Assembly: GCF_003999995.1 (NCBI RefSeq)
Contig: NZ_RJAD01000003.1
Location: 310,001-374,000, forward strand
DNA length: 64,000 bases
Source of the DNA: Microbacterium sulfonylureivorans
Lineage (GTDB): Bacteria > Actinomycetota > Actinomycetes > Actinomycetales > Microbacteriaceae
Direction: 5' to 3'
Under the pieces are notes generated by a model that did not search any database, was not told where the DNA came from, and worked only from the letters and a program-made list of their open reading frames with translations. Of the stretch, positions 1 to 18,769 are shown piece by piece; the stretch's first letter is position 1; every line of letters starts with the position of its first letter. A program made the position numbers and the translations under genes.

Positions 1-30
1 GAATCGAGCCGAGCGCGATCGCGCGCAAGC

Positions 31-1014
31 ATGGAAGCGGCTCGACTGCACGCCCGCCTCGGCACGGACATGTCCATACCAATTGATGTCTTCGAGGTGG
101 TCCGTGAGCTTGGCGTATGGCTCTCGGCGCGTGACCTCTCTTCGACGCTCTTCGGGTTCTACCTCTCCGATGGCGGCACATTCGGGATCTGCCTCAATGA
201 TCGGCATCCGGAGCCCCTCCAACGTCTGACGTGCGCGCACGAGCTAGGGCACCACATGCTCGGCCATCAGTCAGCGCTGGACCTCGAACGGCACATTAGT
301 GGCGGAGGCGACACCTCACTCGCTGAGGTGGAGGCACAGGCATTTGCATCGGCGTTTCTGATGCCGCCCGGCCTCGTGAATCGGAAAATGAGAACGCTTG
401 ACCTAAACGGGCGATCCGGCCTCACGGATCTCGACCTCTATCGTCTCGCACGCACGATGGACACGAGCTTTTCAGCAACCGTGTGGCGGCTAGTGGACCT
501 GGAAATATTGACCCCGGCGGCTGCGAAGGAGCTGGCGCGAAAAGGGCCCTCAAAGGCCAAGGCCATTCTCATTCAGCCGTTCGCTGCTCCAGGGCGCGGC
601 GAAGTGGTGGAGGTGGATGCCGAGCGCCAAGACCTGGCGCTGTGCCGCGTCGGTGACCACGTAATGGTGGACCTCCCCAATCACGGGGATTCGGGCTACA
701 TCTGGGTCGCGGACGGTCAGCTCCCGGGGTCGTTCCCGCCGGGGCTGGTCTGGGATGGAGCGGGTACCCTGGCACAAGCTGCGCAACCACTTGTCGCCCG
801 GCACGCCCCCGAATCGGGTGGCGGAAGCCGGCTGCACTTTCAGTTCGAGGCTCCAGGGCCGGCGGAGGTATCGATGCAGCTGATACGCCCGTGGGAGGCA
901 TCGCCCAGACCCGCGGCTGAGCTTCCGCTTAATGTAGTGGTCCAACCCGAGCATCAAGTCGTCGGTATGGATGCGGCCCAAATCGGTGCCTACGCGCGAC
1001 GGGTGGGTAGCTGA
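31..1014 (+). CDS. ImmA/IrrE-family zinc metallopeptidase fused to a chagasin-like (I42) cysteine-protease inhibitor domain
   Basis: The N-terminal half (about residues 1-165) is an ImmA/IrrE peptidase: HELGHH at 70-75 gives the HExxH zinc site and the EVEAQAFASAFLMP stretch from 99 supplies the third ligand and the conserved helix of the family. Family members cleave repressors (ImmA on ImmR, IrrE on DdrO) after stress signals. The C-terminal half (about 185-305) looks like a chagasin-type inhibitor: GDHVMVDLP, then NHGDSGYIW at 217-225 in place of NPTTGYxW, a GGG turn at 263-265, and RPW at 286-288, the three loops that plug papain-like active sites. The reading frame stays open to the window edge, ten codons upstream of this ATG, so the true start may lie outside. 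The stop codon abuts the GTG of the papain-like protease gene. The peptidase call is firm; the inhibitor domain is read from motifs only and its target is inferred from the neighbour. Confidence 0.85.
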   Translation: MEAARLHARLGTDMSIPIDVFEVVRELGVWLSARDLSSTLFGFYLSDGGTFGICLNDRHPEPLQRLTCAHELGHHMLGHQSALDLERHISGGGDTSLAEVEAQAFASAFLMPPGLVNRKMRTLDLNGRSGLTDLDLYRLARTMDTSFSATVWRLVDLEILTPAAAKELARKGPSKAKAILIQPFAAPGRGEVVEVDAERQDLALCRVGDHVMVDLPNHGDSGYIWVADGQLPGSFPPGLVWDGAGTLAQAAQPLVARHAPESGGGSRLHFQFEAPGPAEVSMQLIRPWEASPRPAAELPLNVVVQPEHQVVGMDAAQIGAYARRVGS

Positions 1015-1686
1015 GTGCTCAGATGGGTGTTCGATGGGCGATCGGATAGCCGCCCGGTGGATGACCAAGGGATGCGGTCCATTTGTCTCGCCGTATCAGC
1101 CACGTTCGTTCACGATCTCGCACGCGACGATCTCATGAGTGCCGAGTACCTTCATTGGGATTCCGAACGGTACGGTGGTCGCGGACATCCTCGGTCGGTG
1201 GCGAAGTCCCTAGCGACTACCGGCCAGCCGCCCTCGGCACAATGGCCGATGGACGCGGCGATCGACGACACCGACTCGGCGTACGCACCGTCGAGCCTAG
1301 TGATCGGTCCGTTTCGCAGGGCGGTGACGGAGACCTACTTCGACCTCGATCTAGCGATCGATAAGGTCGCGGGCGGAACGCCCGTCGTGATGTGCCTCCT
1401 CACCTCCCCGGAGTTCTACGATCCCGACGTCTCAGTCATAACGACGTGGACCGGCCCAATTGCTGGGCACGCTGTCGTGGCGATCGGTCTCGCGATATAC
1501 GACGGGCCGCCGATCCCGGGCGGACCCGAACCAGGTGCCAGATTCCTGTGCCTACGCAATAGCTGGGGCGCGGACTGGGGCAGGGCTGGTCATGTCTTGA
1601 TGAGCGAAGTAGTCGCGCGTCAGTGCACCCAAGTAGCCCTCGATATCGCCCCGCTCGATCCTGATGCAAGATCCATTCGTGCTTAG
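1015..1686 (+). CDS. Papain-like (C1 family) cysteine protease, no propeptide
   Basis: A 223-residue protein with the complete C1 active site: the oxyanion Gln18 in PVDDQG, nucleophile Cys24 in RSICLAVSAT, His152 in GHAVVAIG and Asn182 in LRNSWGADWG. The MSAEYLHW segment after the first helix also matches C1 enzymes. There is no signal peptide and no room for an inhibitory prodomain, because the catalytic Cys is only 24 residues from the start; the enzyme would therefore be born active in the cytoplasm. The GTG start follows the preceding TGA with no spacing (TGAGTG), so translation is probably coupled to the gene that carries a chagasin-like inhibitor domain. Most papain-like proteases with known biology are exported or self-inhibited, so a cytoplasmic one paired with an inhibitor suggests a controlled toxin or an effector protease. 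Substrate unknown. Confidence 0.85.
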   Translation: MLRWVFDGRSDSRPVDDQGMRSICLAVSATFVHDLARDDLMSAEYLHWDSERYGGRGHPRSVAKSLATTGQPPSAQWPMDAAIDDTDSAYAPSSLVIGPFRRAVTETYFDLDLAIDKVAGGTPVVMCLLTSPEFYDPDVSVITTWTGPIAGHAVVAIGLAIYDGPPIPGGPEPGARFLCLRNSWGADWGRAGHVLMSEVVARQCTQVALDIAPLDPDARSIRA

Positions 1687-1975: not shown

Positions 1976-2641
1976 CTATTCTTCTCGTTGCCCTGCTTCA
2001 GATTGACTAGGCAGTGCACGCTCCAATTCGACAGGCGCGGTGCCCGTGCGTCGTTCCCACCGCACTCCGTTCGCGTCAGTAAACTGTATGACCCCCTGTC
2101 CCCTCCCCGGCTCGAAGGCTTGAGGCAGCAATCGGGAGAGGCGGAGCCACGGCGACTGCACGCTAGGTGCGAGCGGCGACATGCGAGCTTCATCCGTGAT
2201 CTTCTCTTTGTCGAACATGCCGTAGTACCTCACGTCCGTCACCGGAGCGTCGCTCCTGTTGACGAGTTCAAGGTTCACCTCCAAACCCTCTGAACCAGAG
2301 GAGGTCGATCCCCACGTCACATGAATTTGCTCTGCCTGCGCGCGTCGTGCTGAATCCACCTGAAACACAAGGTTCGCGTGCTCGGTAGCAGCCGTCTGTC
2401 TTGCTGCGTCCGCGGCACCTGCCGCGTGCCGAGTTGCTCTCCAAGCGGCTACTGCGGCGACGGCGCCGACGATGGCTGCCGCGGCGGAGACCATCAGAGT
2501 TATGAGGTCGACGGTGGGATCTCCTGCGGGGAGGTTAACCGTTACTGGCGGGGGCGGGACAATCACAGTGACTGTCGGGACAGGCAGCGGATCCGCCGTG
2601 GGCGTCGGCGAGGGGGCGACGGACGCGGGGAGGAAGATCAC
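1976..2641 (-). CDS. Hypothetical single-pass membrane protein
   Basis: Not recognised. The N-terminal 45 residues are rich in Pro, Thr and Val, followed by one hydrophobic segment (VDLITLMVSAAAAIVGAV, about 46-66), a short Ala/Arg-rich helix that may be a coiled coil, and a C-terminal region of about 120 residues with beta-rich character (VNLELVNRSDAPVTDVRYYG) typical of small globular domains in actinobacterial hypothetical proteins. The only canonical start is the GTG at 2641. The same frame stays open upstream to about 2776 and reads as plausible protein without offering an ATG, GTG or TTG, so the N-terminus may be longer or the gene may be damaged. It lies downstream of the small HTH gene on the same strand. 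Confidence 0.6.
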   Translation of the reverse strand: MIFLPASVAPSPTPTADPLPVPTVTVIVPPPPVTVNLPAGDPTVDLITLMVSAAAAIVGAVAAVAAWRATRHAAGAADAARQTAATEHANLVFQVDSARRAQAEQIHVTWGSTSSGSEGLEVNLELVNRSDAPVTDVRYYGMFDKEKITDEARMSPLAPSVQSPWLRLSRLLPQAFEPGRGQGVIQFTDANGVRWERRTGTAPVELERALPSQSEAGQREE

Positions 2642-2792: not shown

Positions 2793-2972
2793 CTAGCTGT
2801 CAACTCCAAACGCGCGGAGCAAGCCTGCGCGAGGAATCATCCGTCTCTGCCCAAGCTGGACGGTGGGGATCGTCCCGTTCTCGATGCCGAGCTTGATCGT
2901 GCGGTAGTCCACGCCGACTAGGCGCGCGGCATCCTTCATGGTCAGCGCCAGCGAATTCGCTGTCTTGTTCAT
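2793..2972 (-). CDS. Small excisionase/MerR-type HTH DNA-binding protein
   Basis: A 59-residue protein with the helix-turn-helix layout of excisionase-family DNA-binding domains: TMKDAARLVGVDYRTIKLGIENGTIP followed by the wing-like VQLGQRRMIPRAGLLRAFG. The ATG at 2972 is chosen over an upstream alternative because GGAG lies six bases before it. Proteins of this type control excision or plasmid/phage replication genes, but small HTH proteins of the same fold also act as plain regulators. Its position in an accessory segment, divergent from another HTH gene, fits a mobile-element remnant. Confidence 0.7.
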   Translation of the reverse strand: MNKTANSLALTMKDAARLVGVDYRTIKLGIENGTIPTVQLGQRRMIPRAGLLRAFGVDS

Positions 2973-3103
2973 GTCCCGCTCCTTCCCGTATGAGCAGTGC
3001 GCGTCAGCACTTGCCCACACAGTACTCCTGCCGCGAGCAATCCGCGACACCAATTCCTCACGCCGCGTTGTTCTTGTCGAGACGCCGTGGAAGACTCACC
3101 ATC

Positions 3104-10630: not shown

Positions 10631-13600
10631 TCAGATCGTCGACCGCCGGCGGCTGCGAACGACGGCGACGATGAGGCATCCCGCCCCTGCGATCAGCGCG
10701 GCGAGCCCCGCGACGAGCACCCACGCCCGCAGCTCACCGCCTGTGGTCGCAAGGTCGGAGATCACCGGAGGCAGGACGACGACGTCGCCCTCCGCTGCGG
10801 CGAGGTTGTCGGCGAGCACCGGGTCGTAGGCCGCCGAGAGCGCGACGGCCTGGTTGACGACGTCCGCACCCGCGGCGAGCGCGGGGTCGACGGTGCCCAC
10901 GATCGTGTCGTAGATCGTCACGCCCACCGGAAGCTCCGGATACGTGCACTCGACGACGTTCGGGTGCGACGCCAGTGAGTACGGGCCGTACTCGGGCGCC
11001 AGTCCCTCGAGATCGCTCGCGAGCGTGGGCCGGGTCTCGCAGTCTGCGCCGGGCACGGCATCGTCGGGCGCGCCGACGGGGTTCAGGATGCCCGCGGGGA
11101 TCGGGTCGACCGTGCGGACGTCGGTCGCCACCGACGGGCCGTTGTTGGTCGTGGCGATGAGGTAGCTGATCGGCTTGCTCGCCACCACCGCCAGGACGTC
11201 GAGCGTCTTGGTCACTGCGAGGTCGGCGACCGGCTCGACGGTCACGTTGACCACGCCCGTGTCGCAGACGGGGGTCGGGCTGGACGTGTCGCACAGCTCG
11301 TAGGTGAAGGCGTCCGCGCCGTCGTACCCCGCATCGGGCGTGTACGTGATCGTGTCGTCGGCGTTCACGACGACCGTTCCGTGCTCAGGCTCGGCGGTGA
11401 CCGCCGGCGGCGCGGCGAACGGCTGACCGGATGCGGACGACGCGCCGGCGTGCACGTCCAGAGGCTCGGCCGTCTCGTCCACACGGGTGGCGATGGCGTG
11501 GTCCGGTGCCGCGACCGTGTTCGGCAGGACGCGGACCGCGATGACCACCGTGTCGCACTCCTGCGGTGTGGCGGTATCGCAGACAGTCACCTCGTAGGAG
11601 TCCGGACCCGAGTATCCCGGCGCCGGCGTGTAGGTCACCGCACCGCCGCCGGCGGCCGGCGCGGCGAACCCGAGCCGACCTGCCGTGGCGCCGATGGTGA
11701 TGCTGCCGTGCTCGGGCGCGGTCACCTCGGTGGTCGTCGCAGGGTCGAGCGGCATGCCGGCCGCGGTGACGATGTCGGCGAGCGGGGTGGTGACGCTCGA
11801 GTTCTGCGCGACCTCGACGCCGATGTTCTCCTCGGCCGCGGGACCGTGGATGAAGACGTTCGCGATCTCCAGCGAGACGGTGGCCGTGTCGCACACGGGG
11901 TCGGGGTGCGACGTGTCGCAGACCTCGTACGTGTACTCGTCTGTTCCGGAGAAGCTCGCGTTCGGCGTGTAGGTGATCGTCCCGTCGCCGTTCACCGCCG
12001 CGACGCCGTTCGCCGCCTGCGCGGTCACCGACGGGAGCGCGAAGGACTGTCCGGACGCGGACGTGTCGTTGGCGCGCACGTCGCTGGCGACGGACTGGCC
12101 CGCGTCGGTCGCCGCCGCGTCGTTCTCGGCGGAGACGGTGTTCGGCTCGACCTGCGCCGCCACCGTGACGCTGCGGCACTGCTGCGGCGTGGCCGTGTCG
12201 CACACCTCGACGGCGAACGAGTCGGGCCCCGCGTAGCCGGCCGTCGGCGTGTACGTGACGTCGCCGGTGACGGGGTCGATGGTCAGGTCGCCGTGCGACG
12301 GCGCCGACTCCTGCGCCATCGTCGTCGGGTCGAGCGAAGCGCCGGACGCCGTGACGATGTCGGCGAGCACCGCGGTGATCGCACCGTTGTGAGCGACGGT
12401 GATGCCGTCGCGACTGGCGGCTGCGGTGCCTTCGGCGAAGACGTTGTCGACGGTGACCGCGACCTCGGCGGTGTCGCAGACGGGGTCGGGGGTGGACGTG
12501 TCGCACACCTCGTAGGTGTACGAGGTCGCTCCGCTCCATGCGGCGGCCGGGGTGAACGTGATGGTGCCGTCCGCGTTCACGGCGGTGGCTCCGGACGAAG
12601 ACTCATTCGTCACGGTCGGAATCGCGAAGGCCTGGCCGGACGCGGAGGTGTCATTGCCCCGGACGTCGGTGACGACATCCTGCCCCGCCTCGGTGGTCGC
12701 CACGTCGTCGACGGCCGTCACGACGTTGTCCGCGACCTCTACGGCGACGGTGACGTCGTGGCATTCCTGCGGGGTCGCGCCGTCACAGGCGGTGACGGTG
12801 TACGCATCGGCACCCGAGTAGCCGGGCGTGGGCGTGTAGGTGACGGCGCCCGTGGCCGGATCCACCGCGATGCTGCCGTGCTGCGGCGACGTCGCCTCGG
12901 TGACCGTGGTGGCGTCGACCGGTGACCCGTCGGCGGTGAGGATGTCGGCCAGCGGCGTGGTCACCGCGACGTTCTGCGTCGTCCCGATGCCGTCGTTCGC
13001 GGCCGCAGCGGGCCCGTCGACGAACACGTTCGCGACGTCGACCGTGACGGTCGCCGTGTCGCACACCGGGGTGGGCGCCGACGTGTCGCAGATCTCGTAC
13101 GCGTACGAGTCCGCACCGCTGAACGCGTCATCGGGCGTGTAGACGAGAGCACCGGCACCGTTCACGGTCACGGTGCCACCCGCCGGCTGCGCGGTCACCG
13201 TCGGGATGGCGAGCGGCTGCCCGCTCGCGCTGGTGTCGTTCGCGAGGACCGGGGTGGTGACGGGCTGGTCGGCCGTGGTCGCCGCGGGGTCGTCGACGGC
13301 CGTCACCACATTGGCGGCGACCGTGACGCCCACCGTGACGTCGTGGCACTGCGATGGCGTCGCCGTGTCGCAGACGTGCACGGTGTAGGCGTCAGGGCCC
13401 GAGTATCCGGCGGTCGGCGTGTAGGTCACCGCACCGGATGCCGCGATCGAGATCGATCCGTGCTGCGGCGCCGTCACCTGGGTGACCTCCGTCGGATCGA
13501 CGGGAGCGCCGAGCGTGGTGACGATGTCGTCGAGCGGGGTCGTCACCGCGGTGTTCTGCGCCGTGTCGACGCCGGCGTTGGCAGCTGCCGCCGGGCCGTC

Positions 13601-16600
13601 GACGAACACGTTGCCCATCGTGACCGTGACGGTGGCGCTGTCGCAGGATGCGACCGGGAACGACGTGTCGCACAGCTCGTAGCGGTAGGAGTCGGTGCCG
13701 CTGTATCCGGGTGCGGGCGTATAGGTGACCGTGCCGTCGCCGTTGACCACGGCCGCACCGTGGTCCGGTGCGGTGATGATCGTCGGGGGCGCGAACGGCT
13801 GGGCGCTCTCGGACTCGTCGTTGGCGCGCACGTCGGTCGTGACCGCCTGGCCTGTCAGCGTCTGCGCGTCGTCGTCGACGGCCGTGACCACGTTCGGGGG
13901 CACGGTGATGCCGACGATGACCGAATGGCACTCCTGCGGGGCAGCGGTGTCGCACACGCTCACCTCGTACGTGTCCGTGCCGCCGTACCCCGTCTGCGGC
14001 GTGTACGTGACGGCGCCGGTCACAGGGTCGATGCTGATGCTGCCGTGCCGTGGCGCGTCGACCTCGGCGACCGTGGTCGCGTCGAGCGCCGCGCCCGTGG
14101 TGGTGACGATGTCGGCGAGGGGCGTCGTGACCGGCGTGTTCTGCGCAGTGCCGATGCCGCCGTTCGCGTCGGCGGCAGGACCGTCGACGAACACGTTGTG
14201 CATCAGCACGTCGACGGTGGCCGTGTCGCACACCGGGGTCGGAGACGACGTGTCGCAGACCTCGTAGGTGTAGGCATCCGCACCGCTGAATCCGGCGTCC
14301 GGCGCGTACGTGACCGTTCCGTCGCCCTGGACGGTCGCGGTGCCGTTCGCACCGGCGACCGTCACCGTCGGGAAGGCCAGCGACTGGCCGGACGCCGACG
14401 TGTCGTTCGCCCGGACGTCCGTCGTGACCGCCGCGCCCACCGAGGTCGTCGCGTCGTCGTCCACGGCGGTCACCGTGTTCTGCTCGACGGTGACCGTCGC
14501 ACCGGCCACCGTGCACTGCACGGGAGCGGACGTGTCGCAGACCCGGATCTCGTACGCGTCAGGCCCGGCGTAGCCGGCATCCGGCGTGTAGGTCACCGCA
14601 CCGGTGGCGGGGTCGATCGTGATTGCGCCGTGTTGCGGAGCGGTCTGCGCGGTCGCCGAGGCCGGATCCAGCGGCGCACCCGCGGCGGTGACGATGTCGG
14701 CGAGCGCCGTGGTCACAGCCGTGTTCTGCGGGGTCGTCTCCGCCGGGTCGAGGGCCGTGAACACGTTCACGACGCTGTCGGTGTCGGATGCCGTGTCGCT
14801 CAGCGTCACAGAGCCGTCCGCGGGGTCGGATGCCTCCACCGTGGCGGTGTTGACGACCGTGTCCTTCGTGCCCGGGAGCACGCGGACCGTCACCGTCGCC
14901 TGCGCGGAAGACCCGGCGGCGCCGGTGGTCGCCGTGCCGTCACCGACGGTGCCGGCCGCGGTGAGCGAGCCGACGTTCCACGTGATCTCCTGACCGCTCA
15001 CGGTGATGCCCGGGCTTGCCGAGACGAACTCGAGACCGGCGGGGAGGGTGTCGGTGACCAGCACCCCGTTCAGTGCCTCGCCGGTGAGCCCGTTGGTCGC
15101 GGTGAGCGTGTACGTGGTCTCCGCGCCGACCTCGACCGTGTCGACGCCGTCGGTCTTGGTGACGTCGATCTCCGGGCTCGCAGCCGTCACGGTGGAGCAC
15201 GACACAGCCGTGTCGTTCGCGGCGTTCGGGTCGTTGTAGATTCCGGCGATGTCGCCCGTGACACAGGTGGTGCTCGCCGCGGATGCGGTCGGGCGCAGGT
15301 CGAACGTGAGGGTCTCCGGCGCGTCCAGGGCAAGTGTGCGCGCGGTCACCCCATCACCGGCGACCGGCCTGCAGGTGACGACCGTCGGGCCGGTGGTGTC
15401 GGCGGCATCGCAGTCCCAGCCGGCGTTGCCGACATCGACGATGTCCACCCCCGAGGGCACCGCGAACGCCGCGGTCGCCGGCGCCGTCGCCGAACCACCG
15501 AGGTTCGTGACGGTGAAGGGGACTGCGCCGACTCGTCCGATCTGCAGCGGGAAGCGCGACGCGGCGACGATGCGCAGGTCCGACTCCTCTGTGGTGGCAC
15601 ACACCGCGCGCGGCTCGATCGCCGCAAGCAGGTTCGCAGCACCGGCGACGGAGTTGCAGGCGACCTGGTCAGCGGAACCACCGACGAGGGATGCCTCGTA
15701 CACGAACGACTTCGAACCGGCGAACGGCAGGCTGGCGATGGTGGCGCGCAGCGCGCTGGCGCCCACCAGCGACGCCGTCCAGTCCCCCGTCGTCGCACCC
15801 GAGTACACCTCGGGGCGGGGCGGGTTCGTCGATGCGGAGTAGGCAAGGGTGACACCGGCGTCGATGTTGCTGACGGACGCGAGGGTCTCCTTGACCGTGC
15901 TGCCGCGGGGCACGCCGGCGGTCGCTGTGGAGGTTCCGGTGTCGCCGATGAACGGGAGCACGTCGTACAGGTTCACGCCGGTCAGGTCGGCGTTGCCGGT
16001 GTTCTTGACGGTGATGCGGTATTTGATCGAGGTGGCTGCCGGCGGCACACCGACCTTGATGTCGGGGTCGGAGATCCAGTCGCAGCCGTCAGCGGCGGAG
16101 GTCTCGGGCCGGCAGATCTCCTTCGTCACCGCGAACCCACGGGTGGCGGCCAGCGACGTGTTCGCCTCCGCGCGGGCGAACGCGTCCGCGGTCGCACCGT
16201 CACCGTCCAGGTCGGTGGCGTCGTTGTACCGATTGGTCGTGTAGGTGTTGACGATGCTGTTCTCGGCGTCACCGAGCAGTGCCGTCGCCGTCTGAGTGTT
16301 CACACCTGCGGGCGCGGCAAGGGTCGGCGTGGACCGCACCACGAGCTGCGGCAGCGTGATGGTGCCCGTCACCGCCGTCGGCCACGTCGCGACGACGGCC
16401 TGCCGCTGCGTCCCGTTGTAGGTGACCGTGCGGTAGTCGAACGTCGTACCCGCCGGGGCCGCGGTGGCGAAAGACGCCCCGTTCGGGAGGATCTCCCATC
16501 CGAGCGGAGCGATGAAGGAGTACTGCGGCCGGATCGTCGATCCTGCGGGCACGTTCGTCATCGAGCCGGTCGTCCGCCAGGTCACCTCACTGCCGACGAC

Positions 16601-18274
16601 AGCGGTGCCGCCGCCGGTGACCGTCGCCGCGGGAGCGCCTGACGTGAAGGTGACCGGAGGCGGCGTCACAACCGGGTCCACGAGGTTGACGCTTCCGTTG
16701 GCCGGTCCGAGGCTTGTCGTGGTGAGCGTCGGCGTCGTGGGGTACGCCATCGAACCCGTCGCAGTGTTGGTCCGCACCCCCGGCGACGTTCCCGACGACA
16801 GCGTGGTCCAGAACAGCAAGGTGAAAGGGCTGTTCGCGGTTCCTGACGGCGAGGTGTTCACCGGGAGGAGCGGTGACGATGTGGCTGTCGCAGCAGTGAT
16901 GGTCCGCCCCGCCGGTGCGGCGTACCAGGTGCCGTTGTTGACGACTACGGTTCCTGTGGTGCCGTTGTCCAGCGTGTAGTCGATGGTTGCCGGACCACCG
17001 GCGTTGACCTGAATCGCGCGAGTCGGCAAACCCGGTGGGTTGAGAGTGTTGTCGACGATGGTGCCGACACCGGTCACGTTCGACTGGTTGTTGACGGTCA
17101 CACCCCAGTAGCCGCTCGTTGTCGGTGCAGCGGGGGCGACCGGGATGTTCTGCGTCGCACCGGTCGAATAGCTCTTGGTGATGTTCGCCTTGGCGAATGG
17201 TTCACAGTTGCCCACCTGGACGTTCCGGCTGGCATTGGCGGTCTTCACCTGGCCGTCAAGGTAGGTGACGGTGTGCGAGAGGGTGAACGTCTCCGTCGCC
17301 AGACAGCCCGGCGCGGTCGTCGGGTACGCCGTCGTCGGGAATCGCACCACGACCGTCCTGGGGTCGTTCCACACGCCGCCGGCAGCGTTCACACCCGTCT
17401 CAGCGAACGTGACCGTGTGGGTGAGCGGGTTGTACACCCCGCCGGTGCTGGAAACGTACACCGCGTTCGGTGGCAGCTGAATCGTCGCGTCATAGGACTG
17501 CGCGCACGTGAGCCACGGCGAGCCCCGGTAGTTGGCGATCGTATAGTCCCAGGTGCCGCATCCGGAGAAGCTGTAGTGGGGCCACACCTGAACATCGGCG
17601 CCCGCTGCCACGGTGGTCGAGTTCCCGTTGAGCGCCGCAGACGGGTTCGGGACCGTGCTCTTCCATGTCGCGTTCGTGGTGCTCGTGGCGGGGTTGTCGG
17701 AATTCGCGGCCGAGATGGTCGCAGACGCCGTCACCGGCGAGCCGTTCAGGAAGTACGAGCCCGGCGCAGGAGCGTTCGCCGGGTTGGAGAAGATGTTGTA
17801 GCCGATGCTGAACGACCCGCTGGTACCCGCAGCCACGGTCCCCAGGTTCACGGACAGCCCGGTCGCGGGCGTGCCGGTGACAGCGGGAGCGGGCGTGTAC
17901 GGCGGGTTGAAGATGTACGTGGCGGTCTCACGGCGCTGCGTCCCGTAGAACGGGTCGACAGCCACTGCGGGGAGATCCACCTTCGTGCCCGTGCAGTCCG
18001 CGACGTTGCAGCTGTACGCGACGTTCACGTAGTAGTGCGTCATCGTCTGCGCATCCACGGTGCTGACCGGGTTCCCGGCGGCGTCCGTGATCGTGGTGAC
18101 GACCGACACCACAGCCGGACCCGCGGCGCTGGCGGCCGTGGCGGGGACGACGCCGAACACCAGGGCGACCGCCGCGAGCACGGCGCCGATTCGCTGAGGT
18201 CGAGTCCATAGCGTGAGCACTCGGGAGCGCGGTGCTCCCGTCGTCGGGCGGGCTGATCCGTGGTCTCGCTTCAC
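10631..18274 (-). CDS. Giant secreted repeat-domain surface protein with LATTG sorting signal
   Basis: About 2547 residues. GTG 18274 is chosen because AGAGG lies seven bases upstream and the result is a clean signal peptide (hydrophobic core from about 28, cleavage near AASA-AG). The order is: signal peptide; ~850 residues of beta-rich, Thr/Pro/Gly-rich domains, including one near 770-890 with the 'ITVKNTGNADLTGVNLYDVLP' style of DUF11/isopeptide adhesin domains; further DUF11-like domains to about 1170; six tandem ~195-residue units, each made of two cadherin-like modules; a last DUF11 domain; and the C-terminus DLATTGGELRAW, a membrane helix and RSRRR. LATTG fits the LAxTG motif of actinobacterial class E sortases. 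Repeated CDTS..P..C pairs suggest disulfides. It probably stands out from the cell wall as an adhesin or matrix protein. Ligand unknown. Confidence 0.88.
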   Translation of the reverse strand: MKRDHGSARPTTGAPRSRVLTLWTRPQRIGAVLAAVALVFGVVPATAASAAGPAVVSVVTTITDAAGNPVSTVDAQTMTHYYVNVAYSCNVADCTGTKVDLPAVAVDPFYGTQRRETATYIFNPPYTPAPAVTGTPATGLSVNLGTVAAGTSGSFSIGYNIFSNPANAPAPGSYFLNGSPVTASATISAANSDNPATSTTNATWKSTVPNPSAALNGNSTTVAAGADVQVWPHYSFSGCGTWDYTIANYRGSPWLTCAQSYDATIQLPPNAVYVSSTGGVYNPLTHTVTFAETGVNAAGGVWNDPRTVVVRFPTTAYPTTAPGCLATETFTLSHTVTYLDGQVKTANASRNVQVGNCEPFAKANITKSYSTGATQNIPVAPAAPTTSGYWGVTVNNQSNVTGVGTIVDNTLNPPGLPTRAIQVNAGGPATIDYTLDNGTTGTVVVNNGTWYAAPAGRTITAATATSSPLLPVNTSPSGTANSPFTLLFWTTLSSGTSPGVRTNTATGSMAYPTTPTLTTTSLGPANGSVNLVDPVVTPPPVTFTSGAPAATVTGGGTAVVGSEVTWRTTGSMTNVPAGSTIRPQYSFIAPLGWEILPNGASFATAAPAGTTFDYRTVTYNGTQRQAVVATWPTAVTGTITLPQLVVRSTPTLAAPAGVNTQTATALLGDAENSIVNTYTTNRYNDATDLDGDGATADAFARAEANTSLAATRGFAVTKEICRPETSAADGCDWISDPDIKVGVPPAATSIKYRITVKNTGNADLTGVNLYDVLPFIGDTGTSTATAGVPRGSTVKETLASVSNIDAGVTLAYSASTNPPRPEVYSGATTGDWTASLVGASALRATIASLPFAGSKSFVYEASLVGGSADQVACNSVAGAANLLAAIEPRAVCATTEESDLRIVAASRFPLQIGRVGAVPFTVTNLGGSATAPATAAFAVPSGVDIVDVGNAGWDCDAADTTGPTVVTCRPVAGDGVTARTLALDAPETLTFDLRPTASAASTTCVTGDIAGIYNDPNAANDTAVSCSTVTAASPEIDVTKTDGVDTVEVGAETTYTLTATNGLTGEALNGVLVTDTLPAGLEFVSASPGITVSGQEITWNVGSLTAAGTVGDGTATTGAAGSSAQATVTVRVLPGTKDTVVNTATVEASDPADGSVTLSDTASDTDSVVNVFTALDPAETTPQNTAVTTALADIVTAAGAPLDPASATAQTAPQHGAITIDPATGAVTYTPDAGYAGPDAYEIRVCDTSAPVQCTVAGATVTVEQNTVTAVDDDATTSVGAAVTTDVRANDTSASGQSLAFPTVTVAGANGTATVQGDGTVTYAPDAGFSGADAYTYEVCDTSSPTPVCDTATVDVLMHNVFVDGPAADANGGIGTAQNTPVTTPLADIVTTTGAALDATTVAEVDAPRHGSISIDPVTGAVTYTPQTGYGGTDTYEVSVCDTAAPQECHSVIVGITVPPNVVTAVDDDAQTLTGQAVTTDVRANDESESAQPFAPPTIITAPDHGAAVVNGDGTVTYTPAPGYSGTDSYRYELCDTSFPVASCDSATVTVTMGNVFVDGPAAAANAGVDTAQNTAVTTPLDDIVTTLGAPVDPTEVTQVTAPQHGSISIAASGAVTYTPTAGYSGPDAYTVHVCDTATPSQCHDVTVGVTVAANVVTAVDDPAATTADQPVTTPVLANDTSASGQPLAIPTVTAQPAGGTVTVNGAGALVYTPDDAFSGADSYAYEICDTSAPTPVCDTATVTVDVANVFVDGPAAAANDGIGTTQNVAVTTPLADILTADGSPVDATTVTEATSPQHGSIAVDPATGAVTYTPTPGYSGADAYTVTACDGATPQECHDVTVAVEVADNVVTAVDDVATTEAGQDVVTDVRGNDTSASGQAFAIPTVTNESSSGATAVNADGTITFTPAAAWSGATSYTYEVCDTSTPDPVCDTAEVAVTVDNVFAEGTAAASRDGITVAHNGAITAVLADIVTASGASLDPTTMAQESAPSHGDLTIDPVTGDVTYTPTAGYAGPDSFAVEVCDTATPQQCRSVTVAAQVEPNTVSAENDAAATDAGQSVASDVRANDTSASGQSFALPSVTAQAANGVAAVNGDGTITYTPNASFSGTDEYTYEVCDTSHPDPVCDTATVSLEIANVFIHGPAAEENIGVEVAQNSSVTTPLADIVTAAGMPLDPATTTEVTAPEHGSITIGATAGRLGFAAPAAGGGAVTYTPAPGYSGPDSYEVTVCDTATPQECDTVVIAVRVLPNTVAAPDHAIATRVDETAEPLDVHAGASSASGQPFAAPPAVTAEPEHGTVVVNADDTITYTPDAGYDGADAFTYELCDTSSPTPVCDTGVVNVTVEPVADLAVTKTLDVLAVVASKPISYLIATTNNGPSVATDVRTVDPIPAGILNPVGAPDDAVPGADCETRPTLASDLEGLAPEYGPYSLASHPNVVECTYPELPVGVTIYDTIVGTVDPALAAGADVVNQAVALSAAYDPVLADNLAAAEGDVVVLPPVISDLATTGGELRAWVLVAGLAALIAGAGCLIVAVVRSRRRSTI
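10735..10760 (-). other. Sortase signal LATTG of the giant surface protein
   Basis: The coding strand reads Leu-Ala-Thr-Thr-Gly-Gly immediately before a 20-residue hydrophobic helix and an Arg-rich tail. The LPxTG-like order (motif, helix, positive charges) and the Ala at position two point to a class E sortase. No sortase gene is in the window. Confidence 0.7.
11230..14770 (-). repeat. Six tandem ~585-bp units inside the surface-protein gene
   Basis: Each unit begins with an Asn-Val-Phe-(Val/Ala/Ile)-(Asp/Glu/His)-Gly block (near 14764, 14197, 13605, 13025, 12440 and 11855) and contains two ~97-residue modules. Both modules share '(T/P)xxGYxGxDxY...CDTxxPxxC', the Tandem-95/cadherin-like pattern. 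The DNA copies have diverged clearly while the protein pattern is kept, so the array is old and under selection rather than a recent slippage product. Confidence 0.8.
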
Positions 18275-18769
18275 TGCTCTACCTCTTCGTTCCGGGCATG
18301 GCCGTGGGTCCTGCTGACCTCTGAGAGTCCACGCCCGTGGTCTTGTTACGCGAATCACCCCGACGAGATGCGATCCGCCGCACGAGCCGGGCGCTCCTCG
18401 CTCCCGCAGGCACGCCGAACGGCGCCGACGGAACGGGATGCCGCGTCAGAGGCGATGCAGAAAGCTCCAAGTCCATTCCCCCCGGGTGGATCGGTCAGGT
18501 GTGCAAAGAGGCGGCGGCGGATGCGCCGCCCGCCCCCGGTCCGTCGCGCGCGGGCGCTCGGGCGGGCTGAGCAGCGAGGACGGGGCCGGATGCGGCGGCG
18601 ATGCCTGCGCGGTGCGCGGCCGATTCTCGGCGGCGGGCCGTCGCTGATGTCGGTCGTCTCATGGCCCTCCCTCCAAGAAACTCGCCCCTGGCCCAACTCG
18701 CCGGGGCGTGGCCAGCGTCCCGAGGAGCAGAACGGATCGTCAAGGGACAGCGCTCCGCTGGAGGCCAAT

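What the first reader, a model, noticed from the sequence alone, without database searches (positions are those of the whole stretch)
31..1686. Coupled pair: ImmA/IrrE-chagasin fusion and papain-like protease
Seen: a zinc peptidase motif (HELGHH) joined to a C-terminal domain with the three chagasin loop motifs (GYIW, GGG, RPW), followed with zero spacing by a C1 protease with Cys24, His152, Asn182 and Gln18 all in place. Known: chagasin-type proteins inhibit papain-like enzymes; ImmA/IrrE proteins cleave repressors in response to stress or DNA damage. Inference: gene 1 restrains the otherwise unchecked protease of gene 2, and the ImmA part releases it, by self-cleavage or by removing a repressor, when phage or DNA damage is sensed. 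This would be a protease-based defence or toxin/antitoxin system that I do not recognise as described.
Basis: partly seen in the sequence, partly recalled or inferred. Interest (0 to 1): 0.9.

Follow-up and report, generated by a model that had tools for sequence, protein, structure and literature searches.

The report
Leashed protease in DNA-modification operon
A bacterial gene pair joins a stress-sensing protease that carries a built-in inhibitor domain to a papain-like protease, and the pair sits inside a larger operon that looks made to alter nucleotides or DNA, probably as part of conflict with phages or plasmids.

Summary
Gene 1 is an ImmA/IrrE (M78) peptidase with a C-terminal chagasin (I42) domain. 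Gene 2, starting on the next codon, is a C1 peptidase with Gln18, Cys24, His152 and Asn182. The pair is not free-standing: it ends a gene cluster that starts before the window, with thymidylate synthase, HMUDK_hel, acyl carrier protein, a thymidylate-synthase-like protein (TSL), 4'-phosphopantetheinyl transferase and an XRE repressor. The core recurs in Alphaproteobacteria, a Burkholderia and a halophilic archaeon, often on conjugative plasmids. All 16 plasmid records with the C1 homologue carry ImmA-I42 directly upstream. In 40 TSL loci that have ImmA, I42 and C1 are both present (29) or both absent (11), never one alone; ImmA is shorter in the C1-less loci. This supports I42 restraining C1, but rests on one or two evolutionary events, and no complex model could be run. 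ImmA/XRE resembles CapP/CapH, so release on ssDNA or DNA damage is the likeliest trigger; this is inferred, as is a role in phage defence. Known parts, in a combination I found no description of.

The parts
1..1014 (+). ImmA/IrrE (M78) peptidase fused to C-terminal chagasin (I42) domain; gene continues upstream of the window (probable GTG start at C3:309986)
154..381 (+). M78 peptidase domain match; zinc motif HELGHH at 238-255
   Evidence: (PF06114)
646..921 (+). Inhibitor_I42 domain match; GYIW 694-705, GGG 817-825, RPW 886-894
   Evidence: (PF09394)
1015..1686 (+). C1 papain-like cysteine peptidase, 223 aa, only 17 residues before the active-site Gln (no room for a propeptide); Gln18 1066-1068, Cys24 1084-1086, His152 1468-1470, Asn182 1558-1560

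Best explanation
The pair is the regulator-plus-effector end of a conserved nucleotide/DNA-modifying conflict operon. Shown: the gene order (in most relatives ACP, XRE, ImmA-I42, C1, TSL, then HMUDK_hel or UDG, usually MazG; rearranged in this genome), intact catalytic residues in both peptidases, conserved chagasin loops, and joint presence or absence of I42 and C1. Inferred: in the resting cell XRE represses the operon, and the I42 domain of ImmA sits in the C1 cleft and keeps the adjacently translated protease off. When ImmA is activated, probably by single-stranded or damaged DNA as for CapP and PprI, it cleaves XRE so that the operon is expressed, and C1 is set free by a shape change or by cleavage of the linker. 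C1 then cuts host or invader proteins, or another part of the operon, while the ACP/TSL/HMUDK enzymes alter nucleotides or DNA.
For: Domains and residues. Pairing: 16 of 16 plasmid records with the C1 homologue carry ImmA-I42 directly upstream. In 40 TSL loci that have ImmA: 29 with I42 and C1, 11 with neither, 0 mixed; 22 and 9 after collapsing at 80% identity. Among the 17 of these taken from genome searches with TSL (one, G355, had also come up with the C1 profile): 11 with both, 6 with neither. In C1-less loci ImmA is shorter after HExxH (204-224 residues against 246-258, leaving out L025 at 224, whose frame is broken, and L185 at 327), and Pfam finds no I42 in 4 of 4 of them, against 3 of 4 above cut-off in C1 loci. 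XRE found near TSL in 40 of 40. Best PADLOC hit capP. Activation of CapP and PprI by ssDNA: passages of PMC13373217 and PMC10904395.
Against: The joint presence and absence reflects only one or two events (2 changes on the tree; one C1-less clade not rejected, AU p 0.071). The I42 profile was built from C1 loci, so a diverged inhibitor in C1-less ImmA could be missed; a weak likeness remains in the Streptomyces type. Some C1 loci have altered inhibitor loops. I42-C1 distances correlate (r 0.93) hardly better than M78-C1 (0.91) or TSL-C1 (0.91). The C-terminal domain that helps bind ssDNA in PprI (GAF-like) is here replaced by I42, so DNA sensing may differ. No enrichment of defence genes was measured.
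Confidence: 0.6

Rival explanations
1. C1 acts on ImmA or XRE rather than on outside targets: it is one more step in regulation (for example it clips ImmA-I42 or the repressor), with I42 as its docking handle.
For: C1 lies between the regulator genes and TSL in the 16 plasmid loci read; I42 and C1 come and go together.
Against: XRE and ImmA remain together without C1 in 11 of 40 loci, so basic regulation does not need it; chagasin itself is an inhibitor of papain-family peptidases (PMC2607524, passages).
Confidence: 0.18
2. C1 is not a degrading protease but a processing or transfer enzyme that works with the acyl carrier protein (thioester to amine), part of the base-modification chemistry, gated by I42.
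For: An ACP-like gene with a conserved serine was read in 14 of 14 C1 loci examined (by profile 27 of 29), and PPTase or ACPS genes lie nearby in some; the papain fold can in principle do acyl transfer (recalled).
Against: The operon with ACP persists without C1; the Gln, Cys, His and Asn residues are of peptidase type.
Confidence: 0.12
3. Ordinary neighbours: an I42 inhibitor and a C1 peptidase of general protein turnover that happen to be adjacent.
For: C1/I42 neighbours occur elsewhere: the same genome has another C1 gene followed by a stand-alone I42.
Against: Fixed gene order across bacteria and one archaeon and joint absence.
Confidence: 0.05

Closest known systems
CapH/CapP (and PprI/DdrO, ImmR/ImmA) repressor-protease pairs
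   Same: XRE-type HTH gene directly followed by an ImmA/IrrE peptidase gene; PADLOC capP is the best hit; a profile of the family hits CapP and IrrE structures.
   Different: The part after M78 is a chagasin domain rather than a GAF-like one, and it is paired with a C1 peptidase; cleavage of XRE and response to ssDNA are not shown here.
Chagasin/ICP (MEROPS I42) inhibitors of C1 peptidases
   Same: PF09394 cut-off passed; GYxW, GG and RPW loops align with amoebiasin-2.
   Different: Fused to a zinc peptidase and encoded with its presumed target; the NPTTG part of loop 2 is not there (GDSG here).
5-hmdU DNA kinase / thymidylate synthase / MazG_C / aGPT-Pplase nucleotide systems
   Same: HMUDK_hel, TS, MazG_C and UDG genes in these operons; DefensePredictor lists a 5-hydroxymethyluracil kinase and a thymidylate synthase among domains newly validated in defence, and predicts systems with aGPT-Pplase, MazG, MazG-C and UDG (passages of PMC13092281).
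   Different: A term search of that paper's main text found no 'acyl carrier' and no 'cysteine protease'; homology of whole systems was not tested.

Membership tests
Inhibitor I42 (chagasin) | Match to PF09394 above cut-off | tested here: met
   28.4 bits, cut-off 27.2; L002, L016 and L020 also above it, L017 below
Inhibitor I42 (chagasin) | Three loops: NPTTG, GXGG, RPW/F | tested here: inconclusive
   GYIW after loop 2, GGG and RPW present; NPTTG itself not (motif definition from PMC2607524 passages)
Inhibitor I42 (chagasin) | Ig-like fold; inhibition of a C1 peptidase | not testable with these tools
   structure prediction never ran; inhibition needs the bench
Peptidase C1 | PF00112 match with Gln, Cys, His, Asn of the active site | tested here: met
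ImmA/IrrE (M78) | HEXXH zinc motif and PF06114 match | tested here: met
CapH/CapP regulator | HTH repressor gene next to an ImmA-type peptidase gene | tested here: met
   8 bases apart here; XRE within 8 kb of TSL in 40 of 40 loci with ImmA
CapH/CapP regulator | GAF-like C-terminal domain (seen in PprI passages; for CapP recalled) | tested here: not met
   the C-terminal part matches I42 instead
CapH/CapP regulator | ssDNA-stimulated cleavage of the repressor | not testable with these tools
   bench only
Toxin-antitoxin or anti-phage system | Toxic effector neutralised by partner; protection from phage | not tested
   no assay; defence-type neighbours (annotated caspase, Shedu, CHAT, metallophosphoesterase) seen at some loci but not counted against a control

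The most novel reading that the evidence does not exclude
A two-protease immune switch: one protein senses invasion with its zinc peptidase part, frees an operon by cutting a repressor, and carries the inhibitor that holds a papain-like killer protease in check, all built into an ACP-dependent DNA-base modification system on plasmids and chromosomes of bacteria and archaea.
Probability: 0.4. Interest if true: 0.88.

Novelty: new variant of a known kind. Interest (0 to 1): 0.74.

Why it matters
If right, it is a protease leashed by the very sensor that triggers the response, comparable to zymogen or inhibitor-controlled caspase switches, in an intracellular bacterial setting. It also links an acyl carrier protein and a divergent thymidylate-synthase-like enzyme to base-modification genes (HMUDK_hel, UDG, MazG_C) whose role in defence is only now being tested. 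The C1-containing and C1-less operons form a natural comparison that makes the role of the protease directly testable.

Tried and rejected
Rejected: a free-standing pair. Lone C1 relatives as members: of 19 C1 places at E 1e-10 in 396 genomes of the phylum, two belong to the system (own, G355), one is the own genome's second C1 gene with a separate I42, and 16 showed no I42 or TSL in the short loci fetched. None of the 80 viral-contig loci kept (of 223 relatives found in a capped scan) showed I42 or TSL; a pattern scan with TSL confirmed no relative in viral contigs. Two phage records have a C1 relative and are not among the five phage records with an ImmA match; one of the two was opened. The Martelella hit L007 looks like a chance frame. 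I42-C1 coevolution beyond other pairs: not shown. Streptomyces-type ImmA C-terminus as a degraded I42: only weak (hhalign probability 11%); the cyanobacterial type showed nothing (below 1%).

Rows left out of the 40-locus count (one search read 44): L175 (genome copy of plasmid locus L019), and L149, L178 and L184 (TSL without ImmA). L003 (same as L002) and fragment L140 were not in that table. L025, counted as C1-positive, has broken ImmA and C1 frames. Short strings that fit the loose motif patterns also turn up in C1-less ImmA (GVAW in L172, RLF in L150 and L170); they lie outside any I42 match. Most plasmid loci were first found by C1 or ImmA queries, so they are C1-positive by selection; the plasmid search with TSL returned the same 16 records plus 5 others (2 Streptomyces and 2 cyanobacteria without C1, 1 Burkholderia without ImmA). 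The third Streptomyces (L148) came from the ImmA search.

Full report
What is there. The window is G000:C3:310001-374000. Gene 1 is an ImmA/IrrE peptidase (PF06114) with a chagasin domain (PF09394, just above its cut-off), gene 2 a C1 peptidase (PF00112). The stop of gene 1 is followed directly by the GTG of gene 2, in the same frame. The true start of gene 1 is probably a GTG 15 bases before the window, 8 bases after an XRE gene.

The cluster continues upstream, outside the window (contig C3): metallophosphoesterase 303065-305380 (-), thymidylate synthase 305364-306869 (+), HMUDK_hel 306866-307855 (+, E 1e-93), acyl carrier protein 307997-308284 (+), TSL 308284-309174 (+), a 4'-phosphopantetheinyl transferase (ACPS) 309056-309619 (+, start unsure), XRE 309603-309977 (+), then the pair. 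That it is one operon is inferred from spacing and from relatives. The ACP is recognised from its motif and its family: 13 of 14 small proteins have DS[LKM], and this genome has RSK. Pfam gives it only E 0.06 here, and no hit for L024; NCBI names the equivalent genes 'acyl carrier protein' in 4 of the 5 C1-less plasmid loci read. TSL has no Pfam hit in 3 of 3 copies tried; its invariant Cys, YR and GN pattern and weak profile hits to thymidylate synthases (best E 0.035) point to a divergent relative of that enzyme, as does NCBI's name for the two cyanobacterial copies.

Relatives. A Parvibaculum-group locus (L002) has PPTase, ACP, XRE, ImmA-I42, C1, TSL, MazG and HMUDK_hel. Of 72,556 plasmid records, 16 hold the C1 homologue (E 1e-3), and all 16 have the ImmA-I42 homologue directly upstream (in one, L025, both are unannotated and their frames are broken). 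They are 14 Alphaproteobacteria, a Burkholderia and the archaeon Haloarcula marina; 11 of 16 are predicted conjugative. XRE and TSL, which were not used to find them, are in all 18 loci compared, own and L002 included. MazG is near TSL in 33 of the 40 loci counted below.

Joint presence and absence. Searches with TSL gave 7 of 385 genomes of the class of L002, 4 of 396 of the own phylum, 5 of 219 and 6 of 196 of two orders, and 1 of 189 of the own order, which was the own genome; these samples overlap and the first two include the query's own genomes. Gene 1 is rare in near kin: 5 of 198 relatives gave any match to it, the own genome at full length and four over the M78 part only. Of 44 loci read with wide context, 40 have ImmA and are not duplicates: 29 have C1 and an I42 match, 11 have neither, none is mixed (weakest I42 match E 8e-4 in L171). 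At 80% identity these are 22 and 9, Fisher p 5e-8 without correction for kinship. On a tree of M78 plus TSL the label needs 2 changes, and 0% of 200 bootstrap trees need only 1, but an AU test does not reject a single C1-less clade (p 0.071). So the statistic rests on one or two events. The Streptomyces group lies next to the C1-containing G355 locus. In C1-less loci ImmA is shorter and gives no I42 match. Each of the 40 loci has either UDG (21) or HMUDK_hel (19) within 8 kb, never both; all 11 C1-less loci have HMUDK_hel.

Mechanism. Shown: two peptidases with intact active-site residues, conserved inhibitor loops, recurring order, joint presence. Inferred: ImmA cleaves XRE on a DNA signal, as CapP and PprI cleave their repressors (passages read: PMC13373217, PMC10904395), and I42 holds C1 until then. 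What C1 cuts is unknown. The survival of the operon without C1 and I42 says that the protease is an added part, not the core chemistry.

Known or new. Searches of the paper library listed no account of an ImmA-chagasin fusion or its C1 partner (listings only, open-licence papers, no preprints). The two studies likeliest to cover the base-modification genes, by Iyer and co-workers 2013 (recalled) and Burroughs and co-workers 2015 (cited in PMC13092281), were not held, so an earlier mention there cannot be excluded. Public annotation already names two of these proteins 'protease inhibitor I42 family protein'. DefensePredictor (passages) reports a 5-hydroxymethyluracil kinase and a thymidylate synthase among newly validated defence domains and predicts systems with aGPT-Pplase, MazG, MazG-C and UDG; this makes a defence role for the operon plausible.

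Limits. No structure or complex was modelled. Inhibition, cleavage, toxicity and phage defence were not tested. 

Noticed in passing
G000:C3 about 222270-224100 (L048), outside the window: The same genome has a second C1 peptidase gene (601-aa frame with repeats) followed by a stand-alone 99-aa I42 protein with AGYEW and QRPWE.
   Followed up: partly
L031 (Burkholderia phage FLC9, gp163) and phage record LR756511.1: Two large phages carry a C1 relative with no ImmA-I42 match found in the phage search; possible capture or counter-defence, untested.
   Followed up: no
40 loci: UDG and HMUDK_hel genes exclude each other, one per locus (21 and 19), which suggests that they do equivalent jobs on DNA.
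   Followed up: partly
L015, L022, L023, L026, L020, L021, L017: Variable neighbours of the operon, as annotated: caspase-family proteins at four loci (Pfam gave no caspase match for the one tried, L026), CHAT with metallophosphoesterase, Shedu nuclease, a protein kinase; not counted against a control.
   Followed up: no
window 2793-3053 (-) and 1976-2641 (-): Excisionase-type HTH protein (TIGR01764) and a protein with a weak, below-cut-off EACC1 match just after the pair; hints of a mobile or conflict-gene border.
   Followed up: no
window 10631-18358 (-): A 2575-aa open frame with many repeats and a hydrophobic C-terminal stretch by eye, apparently a large surface protein.
   Followed up: no
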